Below the pieces are notes generated by a model, which saw only the letters and a list, made by a program, of their open reading frames with translations, searched no databases and was not told the DNA's origin. Both the position numbers and the translations under genes were made by a program. Positions 18,602-21,260 of a stretch of 64,000 nt of DNA are shown one piece after another. The DNA is from Lunularia cruciata (lineage: Eukaryota > Streptophyta > Marchantiopsida > Lunulariales > Lunulariaceae), in assembly GCA_948567375.1 (NCBI GenBank), contig OX419759.1, forward strand, positions 5,672,744 through 5,736,743, written 5' to 3'. Position 1 is the first letter of the stretch; each line of letters starts with the position of its first letter.

Positions 18602-19152
18602 GTGCCAAGAGACCAATGTGAGGATGAGCCTTTGGAGTCTATCATATTGTCATCTTTTGATACCACACTCATTGCTTGGCAGTATCTAGAGGGAGGAGTA
18701 TGTCTAATGGAGTTGTTTGGTAGGATTAGCATTGGACTAGTTGTGGTAAGTATCCAAGTGCATGGGTATTTGTATGTGGAAAGAGATGAGACTATTAGGA
18801 AGGTCTCTCTACATCATGTGGTATATTTGGCCTATTGGTATCTTGAGTTATTACTGATGTCGTCAGTCAAGGGTTACCAAAAGACCTTGCTAGTAGATAT
18901 CTCCTTATTGGAGGTATAGGATTTGGAGAGATATGGTCCCATTCATTTGGTGATGTTTGGACGGCTATGTTAGGGACATACATGCTGGCTGAGATGAGAC
19001 TCCAAGATCACCATTCTGGTATGTTTTGGGATATGTTACGTATACTACAACATCTTTAGGTTCATCAATCTGTTTCTCTTGCCTACATTTTAGAGAATTT
19101 CTCAAATTTTACAATGTTTGGTATGTCCATGTTGGATGTTTGCTTGTGTTTT
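18602..19152 (+). pseudogene. Cytosine-C5 methyltransferase-like domain, N-terminal half, in element C
   Basis: Motifs of the C5-MTase fold occur in the right order. Motif I, the S-adenosylmethionine loop, reads MELFGRISIGL (18707-18739). YLYVERDE follows at motif II. LERYGPIHLVMFGRLC-stop-GHT contains motif IV, with the catalytic Cys codon at 18968-18970, Pro changed to Leu and the next codon now TAG. After a frameshift comes MFWDMLRILQHL and motif VI as YILENF (19084-19101; usual ENV). The sequence is cut at 19152 by the rRNA relic and resumes at 20665. Such an enzyme would methylate cytosine in DNA. This copy is dead (stops, shift, interruption). Confidence 0.82.
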
Positions 19153-19973
19153 CAATGATCCTTCCGTAGGTTCACCTATGGAAACCTTGTTATGACTTCT
19201 TCTTCTTCTAAATGATAAGGTTTAAAGAACTTCTCACAACGTCACTAGTGGTGAACCGCCGGCATCGCCGCAATCCAAAATCTTCACCGGACCACTCAAT
19301 TGGTGGGAGCAATGGGTGGTGTGTAGGGACATAATCAACATGAGCTGATGACTTGTGCTTACTAGGAATTCCTCGTTGAAGATCAATAATTGCAATGATC
19401 TATCCTCATTATGATGAAGTTTGAAAAGATTACCTAGGCCTTTTGGCCCAGATTATAAACTCATTGAGTCCATCAGTGTAGCACGCATGCAGCCCAAAAC
19501 ATCTAAGGGCATCACAAACCTGTTATTGCCTCAAACTTCCATTGGATAGATGCCAATAGTCCCTGTAAGAAGCTAGCCACAAGGACAAGTCCTTGTGTAG
19601 CTAGTTAGCAGGCTGAGGTCTCATTTGTGAATGGAATTAACCAGAAAAATCACCCCACCAACTAAGAACGGTTGTGCACCACCGCCCATAGAATCAAGAA
19701 AGAGCTCTCAATTTGTCAATCCTTACTATGTCTAGACCAGGTAAGTTTCCCCGTGTTGAGTTAAATTAAGCCGCAAGCCCCACTCCTGATGGTGCACTTC
19801 TGCAAATTCCTTTAAGTTTCAGCCTTGCAACCATACTCCTCTTGGAACCCAAAAACTTTGATTTCTCATGAGGTGCCGGTGGAGTCATCAAATTAACATC
19901 CGCCAATCCCTATTTTGCATTGTTTATGATTGAGACTAGGACGGTATCTGATTGTCTTTGAGCCCCAACTCTT

Positions 19974-20005
<32 letters not shown>

Positions 20006-20664
20006 ACTTTCATAGAAGTTCATCTTTCATGAATCCAAGAATTTCACCTCTGACCATGAAATACAAATGCCCCCAACTGTCCATGTTAATCATTACTTTG
20101 GTCCCAATGACCAATGCAATAAGACTAAAGTCCTATCACATTATTCCATGCTAATGTATTTAGAGCATAGGCTTGCTTTGAGCACTCTAATTTTTTCAAA
20201 GTAACATTGCCGACTCCGTGTCCTGCCCAATTAAGGCCAGAAGCACGTCCCCGGTCAAAAGAGAGAGGCGACCAAATCACACCAATAGAAGCGGACCGCT
20301 CACCCCTTTCCAAGATCCAAGTATGAGCTTTTAACTGCAACAACTTAAATATATGCTATTGGAGTTGGAATTACCGTGGCTGCTGGCACCAGACTTGCCC
20401 TCCAATGGATCCTCACTAAGGGATTTAGATTGTACTCATTCTAATTACCAGACTTGTAAAAGCATAGTATTGTTATTTATTATCACTACCTCCCCATGTT
20501 GGGATTGGGTAATTTGCGCACCTGCTGCCTTCCTTGGATGTGGTAGCCGTTTCTCAGGCTCCCTCTCTGGAATCAAACCCTAATTCTCCGTCACCCATCA
20601 CCATAATGGTTGGCCTCTATCCTACCATCAAAAGTTGATAGGGCAGAAATTTGAATGAAACATC
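19153..20664 (-). rRNA. Decayed 18S rRNA gene fragment (pseudogene)
   Basis: The minus strand matches nuclear 18S rRNA from its 3' end (GGAAGGATCATTG at 19153) back to about 250 nt from the 5' end. Landmarks on the plus strand are CCTTCCGTAGGTTCACC, GTTTCAGCCTTGCAACCATA and TCTATCCTACCATC. The 5' 250 nt are missing, there are small deletions, and many sites show C-to-T or G-to-A changes. It cannot be a working rRNA gene; no 5.8S or ITS sequence is attached. It lies inside the methyltransferase-like domain of element C. Confidence 0.95.
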
Positions 20665-21260
20665 CTTTTGATAGGTGATTCTTACACCCAAGCAATGGCA
20701 AGTACACATCAAGTCCATTCTTGGATGGGACTTGCCATGTTGTTGGATACAGCCAGAGTGGGATCATAGGCTCATTGTCTTCATCTTTGGTAAATAAACC
20801 TCTTACCCAGAGAGGTTCTACAATGTGCTTATGATGGGATTCAACAACTAGACCACCTTATTGTTGTTGACATTTTGGATATTGTGCATTAGTCTCAAAC
20901 GGTGGTAGTGGCTAATAGATCACCTATGGAAATGGTGAACCTTGTTGGACAGTCCCAAGCCTCTTTACCCACACTTTTGAGTTTCCCAAGCTCTCTCATG
21001 CTTAATGAGCAAGAGGACTTGGACTTGTTTGTGACTCATAGTTACAACAATTAGTGAAACTCAACACCAATAAGAGGGAGTGGGTGATGGAGTTCCATAC
21101 CAATATTATCGCTATTATAGCAATGTCAAAGATATCTAGGCATTAGGTGTTAGGTCAGGCTATGGACTTGAATTTTTTGACTTGCATTATGGGCCTTGGC
21201 TTGGCAAAGTAGCATAGAATACACTTGATAAGCATCACCACTTTGACACTTGTGAGCTTT
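20665..21260 (+). pseudogene. Cytosine-C5 methyltransferase-like domain, C-terminal half
   Basis: Directly after the rRNA relic the domain continues. LAMLLDTARVGS-stop-AHCLHLW (20731-20800) corresponds to motif VIII, the Q/S-x-R-x-R loop, here with Arg positions mutated. Then come LQCAYDGIQQLDHLIVVDIL, MVNLVGQSQASLPTLLSFPS, and a target-recognition-like stretch. At 21080-21180 EWVMEFHTN and SRH-stop-VLGQAMDLN fit motifs IX/X (ERExMGF ... RxxxLGxAMDLN). Frames change several times. The order (I, IV, VI, VIII, IX/X) across both halves makes a chance match unlikely. Confidence 0.8.

What the first reader, a model, noticed from the sequence alone, without database searches (positions are those of the whole stretch)
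18602..21235. Ty3/gypsy element carrying a cytosine-C5 methyltransferase-like domain between protease and RT
Across two segments split by an rRNA relic, C5-MTase landmarks appear in order: MELFGRISIGL (motif I), GRLC-stop-GHT (motif IV with the catalytic Cys codon at 18968), YILENF (motif VI), a GS-x-AH-x-L loop (motif VIII) and EFHTN...VLGQAMDLN (IX/X). Protease lies upstream (18125-18300), RT/RNase H/integrase downstream. Known: methyltransferase-bearing retrotransposons have been described in some algae and protists (from memory). I am not aware of a description in seed plants. A retroelement that methylates cytosines could protect, silence or mark its own DNA.
Basis: partly seen in the sequence, partly recalled or inferred. 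Interest (0 to 1): 0.9.

Follow-up and report, generated by a model that had tools for sequence, protein, structure and literature searches.

The report
Retrotransposon fossil carrying a DNA methyltransferase
A dead copy of a mobile element, probably in a liverwort genome, once carried its own enzyme for marking DNA with methyl groups; relatives sit in other liverworts, peat moss and a green alga, so a kind of element described from algae also lives in land plants.

Summary
Region 18695-21209 is a decayed but end-to-end C5-cytosine methyltransferase (MTase) domain in three frames, with 8 stops in 306 codons, split by an 18S rRNA fragment. It sits between protease and reverse transcriptase of a Ty3/Gypsy-type element. 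Window pieces alone give no Pfam hit, but a single-frame read finds relatives at E down to 1.8e-55. These lead to proteins with protease then MTase in Marchantia, Sphagnum, Calypogeia and Closterium, four of 35 also with RT and MTase Pfam domains together. Seven of seven relatives' domains match PF00145. Their profile matches DNMT3A/3B best among solved structures.

The "seed plant" part fails: another element in the window is 79% identical to a Riccia (liverwort) protein, with other well-covered listed matches at 60% or less. The host is probably a liverwort. The kind is known: Gypsy elements with DNMT3 are published for the alga Klebsormidium (PMC5890265). New here is the spread into bryophytes. 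The MTase is better conserved than gag, protease and linker in 7 of 8 comparisons, but mostly less than RT and RNase H. This copy is dead; activity was not tested.

The parts
62038..62517 (-). gag N-terminal part of the same kind of element, now separated by a probable inversion (relatives' residues 1 to about 154)
   Evidence: tblastn, P0009 residues 1-154, E 6.8e-42, 54% identity
12769..13772 (+). gag, continued (from residue 154 of P0009)
   Evidence: tblastn, P0009 residues 154-480, two pieces
13876..14412 (+). spacer and N-terminal part of the protease with the active-site motif (LLDFGAQ, 14266-14286)
   Evidence: tblastn with P0009, P0015, P0017 and others; motif place
14392..18116 (+). 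later insertion of 3.7 kb inside the protease, with an A-rich right end and the same 12-mer at both borders
   Evidence: 12-mer at 14380 and 18117 and nowhere else on either strand of the window; 64% A at 18080-18112
18113..18694 (+). C-terminal part of the protease and linker to the MTase
   Evidence: tblastn pieces that run on into the MTase, 37-45% identity with several relatives; phmmer 1.8e-55 for the single-frame read
18695..18982 (+). MTase, motifs I to IV; catalytic Cys codon at 18968; 2 stops
   Evidence: tblastn 51-55% identity with four relatives' domains
19000..19098 (+). MTase, motif IV to VI (YILEN), in another frame; 1 stop
   Evidence: tblastn 51-61% identity
19153..20656 (-). 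fragment of an 18S rRNA gene lying inside the MTase, 5' part missing
   Evidence: Rfam RF01960, 1128.7 bits and 1171.4 bits; end set by resumption of MTase coding at 20659
20659..20994 (+). MTase, motif VII/VIII (GS-stop-AH) and target-recognition region; 3 stops
   Evidence: tblastn 46-54% identity with four relatives' domains
21015..21209 (+). MTase, motifs IX and X (VLGQAMDLN); 2 stops
   Evidence: tblastn 52% identity with P0024
21583..22699 (+). reverse transcriptase relic
   Evidence: tblastn with P0015, P0032 and P0038
22692..23153 (+). RNase H relic
   Evidence: tblastn with P0015 62% and P0032 56% identity
23257..24561 (+). integrase relic, up to the border of the PHD finger seen in Marchantia P0026
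   Evidence: tblastn with P0015 (23257-23367) and P0026 (23812-24561, E 7.9e-64); last piece 24457-24549 at 71% identity

Best explanation
The finding is an old, dead copy of a Ty3/Gypsy-type retrotransposon whose Pol carries a DNMT3-like C5-cytosine methyltransferase between protease and reverse transcriptase, in a probable liverwort. Shown: the domain, its place, its decay, and less damaged relatives in bryophytes and a charophyte. Inferred: in live copies the MTase is released or kept as part of Pol, travels with the reverse transcription complex, and puts methyl groups on the new cDNA (CG as the likeliest target) before or at integration, so that the copy enters the genome looking like host heterochromatin. 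One Marchantia protein of the family also has a PHD finger at the end of its integrase-like part, which could read a histone tail and steer insertion. My confidence is about 0.93 for the identity, 0.75 for a liverwort host and 0.4 for self-methylation of cDNA.
For: Domain pieces collinear over the whole MTase, E 1e-39 to 5e-12; reversed window best E 1.5. Relatives: 7 and 35; RT and MTase domains in one protein in 4 of the 35 (P0015, P0032, P0040, P0042). PF00145 in 7 of 7 domains of A2. DNMT3A/3B best by profile, and the 50 listed fold matches of 102 with E <= 0.001 are all DNMT3 entries, though the model is weak (pLDDT 56.7). In 7 of 8 comparisons of P0009 (Marchantia) with a protein that has the MTase aligned, the MTase is more alike than gag, spacer, protease or linker, for example 77% against 49-58% with Calypogeia P0024. 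Other retrotransposon DNMT3 domains methylated CG in yeast (SymbioDIRS-Dnmt3, PMC5890265 section 10).
Against: None of five window pieces matches a Pfam family by itself, and the single-frame read finds no solved structure: the window alone would not prove an MTase. No LTR pair was found. Motif IV reads GWPCQG, not the GSPCND of DNMT3A; in Closterium it reads GWECQG, which may weaken catalysis. With P0030 the MTase (48%) is less alike than the protease (55%). Compared with P0015, the MTase is less alike than RT in 3 of 4 proteins (38/42, 38/46, 65/70%) and more in one (88/83%), and never above RNase H by more than rounding. The Klebsormidium domain tested in yeast showed no activity (called inconclusive by its authors, PMC5890265 section 10). 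CpG depletion of the element (0.11) is no more than elsewhere: 19 of 64 kilobase bins are at or below 0.11, 15 of them outside the element.
Confidence: 0.88

Rival explanations
1. The MTase acts on the host instead of on the element: it methylates host DNA in trans, for example to silence competing elements, or it methylates RNA packaged in particles.
For: DNMT3-like domain in a family of which one Marchantia protein, P0026, also carries a PHD finger; RNA methylation is discussed for another element by the authors of PMC5890265 (section 11).
Against: Best matches are DNA-acting DNMT3 enzymes; the tRNA methyltransferases are far weaker (1.8e-5 at best). No data on location of the protein.
Confidence: 0.25
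2. The MTase is a passenger with a structural role (for example nucleic-acid binding during packaging) and no need for catalysis.
For: Both Closterium copies have GWECQG in place of GWPCQG; RT and RNase H are in most comparisons better conserved than the MTase.
Against: GWPCQG is present in the 19 non-Closterium proteins of 42 in which my motif IV pattern matched; the MTase is better conserved than gag, protease and linker in 7 of 8 comparisons.
Confidence: 0.2
3. Chance: the motifs are a reader's pattern found in non-coding repeat DNA.
For: No Pfam match for the window pieces; 8 stops in 306 codons.
Against: E-values to 1e-39 across the whole domain, reversed-window control best 1.5, and collinear gag, PR, RT, RNase H, integrase around it.
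Confidence: 0.01
4. The host is a seed plant or another vascular plant.
For: Repeat-rich window with nested old insertions, as in large genomes.
Against: Most intact RT in the window: 79% to Riccia sorocarpa over the full length; other listed matches covering 90% or more are at 43-60%. Named relatives of the MTase element are bryophytes and a charophyte (801 and 7995 candidates scored). Host genome could not be searched.
Confidence: 0.15

Closest known systems
KnitGypsy-Dnmt3 of Klebsormidium nitens (PMC5890265)
   Same: Gypsy element with a DNMT3-related, non-rearranged C5-MTase inside the Pol ORF; streptophyte host; conserved domain.
   Different: Here: a probable liverwort, and relatives in Marchantia, Calypogeia, Sphagnum and Closterium; PHD finger in one Marchantia protein. 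No K. nitens sequence was retrieved, so common descent of the two is likely but not tested. The published repeats are DIRS-like in layout; repeats were not found here.
SymbioDIRS-Dnmt3 of dinoflagellates (PMC5890265)
   Same: Retrotransposon carrying a DNMT3-type MTase; this one was active on CG in yeast.
   Different: DIRS element, not Gypsy; an independent capture according to its authors.
Host DNMT3 enzymes (DNMT3A/3B of animals; DNMT3 of the moss Physcomitrium)
   Same: DNMT3A/3B are the best profile and fold matches of the family's domains.
   Different: Motif IV is PCQ rather than PCN; 16-21% identity in the listed fold matches; sits in a polyprotein, and no PWWP or ADD domain appears in the Pfam scans. 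The moss enzyme was not compared.
Plant DRM methyltransferases
   Same: Next group in the profile search: two chains named only DNA methyltransferase (3.6e-11, 2.1e-10; tobacco DRM by recall) and DRM2 (5.6e-8).
   Different: DRM motifs are rearranged (stated in PMC5890265); the element's motifs run I, IV, VI, VIII, IX, X.

Membership tests
C5-cytosine methyltransferase (PF00145) | Match to the family profile | tested here: met
   7 of 7 relatives' domains (some incomplete) at E <= 0.01, first member 38.4 bits against a cut-off of 22. Window pieces by themselves: 0 of 5.
C5-cytosine methyltransferase (PF00145) | Motifs I, IV (Cys), VI, VIII, IX, X in order (motif names recalled) | tested here: met
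   Present and collinear in the window, with stops next to motif IV, in VIII and before X.
C5-cytosine methyltransferase (PF00145) | Methyl transfer | not testable with these tools
   Needs an assay; the window copy is dead.
DNMT3 group | Closest to DNMT3 among solved C5-MTases | tested here: met
   DNMT3A 2.4e-19; DRM-type 3.6e-11 to 5.9e-8; HhaI 4.5e-7; no DNMT1 or CMT named among the 60 listed of 66. The 50 listed fold matches are all DNMT3A/3B/3C/3L entries.
DNMT3 group | Motif IV PCN | tested here: not met
   GWPCQG in family members against GSPCND in DNMT3A. I therefore call it DNMT3-like, not a DNMT3.
DNMT3 group | Place inside the DNMT3 clade of a tree with DNMT1, CMT, DRM, DNMT5 | not tested
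   No set of host DNMT sequences was fetched; the tree holds family members only.
Ty3/Gypsy LTR retrotransposon | gag, PR, RT, RNase H, integrase in that order | tested here: met
   tblastn map of the window (gag N-terminus displaced); P0040 with zinc knuckle, protease, RVT_1, RNase H and integrase zinc-binding domains in that order, P0042 with RVT_1, RNase H, integrase.
Ty3/Gypsy LTR retrotransposon | Long terminal repeats | tested here: inconclusive
   No pair found between 24500-28500 and 62400-64000; the 5' end may lie outside the window.
KnitGypsy-Dnmt3 type | DNMT3-related MTase inside the Pol ORF of a Gypsy element | tested here: met
   P0015, P0032, P0040, P0042.
KnitGypsy-Dnmt3 type | Common descent with the K. 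nitens element | not tested
Element of a seed plant | Host is a seed plant | tested here: not met
   79% RT identity to Riccia sorocarpa, far above the rest of the 120 listed matches; one witness only.

The most novel reading that the evidence does not exclude
Bryophytes carry an old, persisting lineage of Gypsy elements shared with charophyte algae, whose polyprotein holds a chromatin writer (DNMT3-like MTase) and, in at least one Marchantia protein, a chromatin reader (PHD finger after integrase), so that the element methylates its own cDNA and picks matching chromatin. This would overturn the printed view that land plants lack transposon-encoded DNA methylases.
Probability: 0.3. Interest if true: 0.75.

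Novelty: new member of a known kind. Interest (0 to 1): 0.5.

Why it matters
[quoted passage not shown] Relatives in Marchantia, Calypogeia and Sphagnum argue against a loss at the move to land. Marchantia polymorpha is a laboratory plant, so the question of what a retrotransposon gains from a DNA methyltransferase, which the 2018 authors left open (PMC5890265, section 11), becomes testable by deletion and methylome work. It also warns that counts of bryophyte DNMT genes may include element copies: one Sphagnum protein (P0013) and one Marchantia protein (P0018) bear the name DNA (cytosine-5-)-methyltransferase, in part cut short, in a public source.

Tried and rejected
Pfam scan of five window pieces: nothing, so the proof had to come through relatives. 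Solved-structure search with the single-frame read: nothing. Scan of viral contigs with alignment A1: 7 stretches matched a pattern, none encodes a relative. Self-methylation footprint in the window: rejected, because CpG depletion is as strong in 15 kilobase bins outside the element. The PHD finger in the window copy: no match beyond 24549, inconclusive because of decay. LTR pair: not found. tRNA genes: none (bacterial settings). Fine placement of the window copy: the tree only puts it on the side with the named land-plant rows, away from Closterium (19 rows, 100/98); its branch is long and its place unsure. Host genome search (copy number, intact copies in the host): 12 requests, none answered because the machine was busy or out of reach.

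Full report
What was checked. The finding says that 18602-21235 holds a C5-MTase-like domain inside a Ty3/Gypsy element. Five stop-free pieces give no Pfam match even at E 10, and a single-frame read of 296 aa finds no solved structure. Taken alone, the window would not settle the matter.

Relatives settle it. A second search, scored on residues 80-400 (protease, linker and the start of the MTase), finds 35 proteins at E <= 0.001 among 7995 scored candidates: 20 from Marchantia polymorpha, 3 from Sphagnum, 2 from Calypogeia, 2 from Closterium, 8 unnamed. Twenty of the 35 carry PF00145 in their precomputed domains, and RVT_1 and PF00145 occur together in 4 (P0015, P0032, P0040, P0042, confirmed). 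In Sphagnum P0019 a stretch matching the window's RT follows the MTase. The Calypogeia proteins fetched do not reach RT.

Map of the element in the window (the 42 proteins then in hand). In order of the polyprotein: gag N-terminus at 62517-62038 on the minus strand, gag continued at 12769-13772, protease at 13876-14412, a 3.7-kb insertion, end of protease and linker at 18113-18694, MTase, RT at 21583-22699, RNase H at 22692-23153, integrase at 23257-24561. With MTase domains alone as queries, the window is matched over residues 1-99, 107-139, 139-250 and 257-321 of 321 (the last piece begins at residue 235 with three of the four queries); the next best place in the window has E 0.17 and the reversed window E 1.5. 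The four pieces hold 8 stops in 306 codons and lie in three frames. It is a dead copy.

What kind of MTase. Seven of seven relatives' domains match PF00145 (some of the seven are incomplete). As a profile (A2) they match DNMT3A first (2.4e-19), then DNMT3B, DRM-type enzymes (3.6e-11 and weaker; the name DRM for the first two chains is recalled), HhaI (4.5e-7) and tRNA methyltransferases (1.8e-5 at best). Sixty of 66 matches are shown and none is named DNMT1 or chromomethylase. A predicted structure is of low confidence (mean pLDDT 56.7, pTM 0.63), but its 50 listed PDB matches, of 102 with E <= 0.001, are all DNMT3A/3B/3C/3L entries, at 16-21% identity. Motif IV, GWPCQG, departs from the DNMT3 form GSPCND seen in the same alignment. 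I therefore write DNMT3-like.

Is the domain kept by selection? P0009 (Marchantia) was compared with nine proteins, eight of which have the MTase aligned. MTase identities are 77 (P0024), 73 (P0017), 74 (P0021), 69 (P0027), 74 (P0013), 76 (P0019), 48 (P0030) and 41% (P0040). In seven of the eight this is the highest of the aligned regions among gag, spacer, protease, protease tail, linker, MTase and the stretch after it; the margin is small with P0013 (protease 71%). With P0030 protease (55%) and protease tail (64%) are higher. Against RT and RNase H the picture differs: P0015 with P0040, P0042, P0032 and P0038 gives MTase 38, 38, 88, 65%, RT 42, 46, 83, 70% and RNase H 53, 55, 88, 84%. So the MTase is held better than most of the polyprotein but mostly less well than RT and RNase H. 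Coding-DNA ratios could not be computed. My motif IV pattern was found in 21 of 42 proteins, GWPCQG in 19 and GWECQG in the 2 from Closterium; of the rest many are fragments that do not reach it, but P0008, P0010 and P0019 have MTase sequence on both sides without it.

The host. The third protein search used the most intact RT of the window (4269-5393, another element). Its best match is a Riccia sorocarpa protein at 79% identity over the whole query (E 2.1e-208). Among the 120 listed of 7639, no other reaches 65%, and the others covering 90% or more of the query are at 43-60%. One element is one witness, and horizontal transfer cannot be excluded, but with the bryophyte relatives of the MTase element a liverwort is the best guess (about 0.75). 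The host genome itself could not be searched.

Known or new. Gypsy elements with DNMT3 in the Pol ORF are described for the charophyte Klebsormidium nitens, with purifying selection, and DIRS elements with DNMT3 for dinoflagellates; of these the dinoflagellate domains methylated CG in yeast (PMC5890265: abstract, sections 9, 10 and 11 and passages seen). In the main text of that paper bryophyte occurs once, for host DNMT3 sequences, and Marchantia, moss and gymnosperm do not occur; supplements were not open to me. [quoted passage not shown] A 2025 paper repeats that some DNMT3s lie in retrotransposons of streptophytes and dinoflagellates (PMC12344493, passages). The passages I saw of PMC6453930, PMC10952607, PMC9033089 and PMC12885004 do not mention such elements. 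Ten searches of one open-licence library, listings read, showed me no report of them in bryophytes. Most listed papers were not opened, and subscription papers and preprints were not covered, so this is not proof of absence. I did not retrieve a K. nitens sequence, so I class the find as a new member of a known kind, with common descent probable and untested.

How it most likely works. Inference from anatomy: an MTase next to RT inside Pol is in the right place to act on new cDNA. De novo CG methylation of the cDNA could hide it from the host or lead the new copy straight into silent chromatin, which would spare host and element alike. One Marchantia protein, P0026, ends in a PHD finger (PF00628, 4.4e-9). 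The part before the finger matches the window's integrase region, though P0026 itself has no Pfam integrase match; the window copy follows it up to the border of the finger at 24549 and no further. A self-methylation footprint was looked for and not found: the element's CpG ratio of 0.11 is reached or undercut in 15 kilobase bins outside it.

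Noticed in passing
window 62038-62517 (-) and 12769 (+); repeats 12076-12767 and 61348-62038: Gag of the MTase element breaks at the same residue (about 154 of P0009) at two places 49 kb apart on opposite strands, each next to one end of an inverted 90% repeat that looks like an LTR. This fits an LTR-element insertion followed by an inversion between inverted repeats.
   Followed up: partly
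window 19153-20656 (-): 18S rRNA gene fragment, 5' part missing, about 1.5 kb, inside the MTase next to motif VI. About 50 bases at 19105-19152 between MTase and rRNA are unexplained.
   Followed up: partly
window 14392-18116, and 30385-31407 on the other strand: 3.7-kb insertion with a 12-base direct repeat at its borders and an A-rich end, as in LINE-type insertions; its left kilobase has a 77% inverted relative at 30385-31407.
   Followed up: partly
window 43086-43589 (+): Open frame with an Ifi-6-16 (interferon-induced 6-16) domain, E 1.4e-11, in a GC-rich stretch; possibly a host gene.
   Followed up: partly
window 3154-6653 (+): A Gypsy element with long open frames whose RT is 79% identical to a Riccia sorocarpa protein.
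   Followed up: yes
P0026 residues 563-607: PHD finger at the end of a Marchantia protein that belongs to the MTase element family, after its integrase-like part.
   Followed up: partly
P0040 and P0042 (Closterium), motif IV: GWECQG in place of GWPCQG in both Closterium copies, which may affect catalysis.
   Followed up: no
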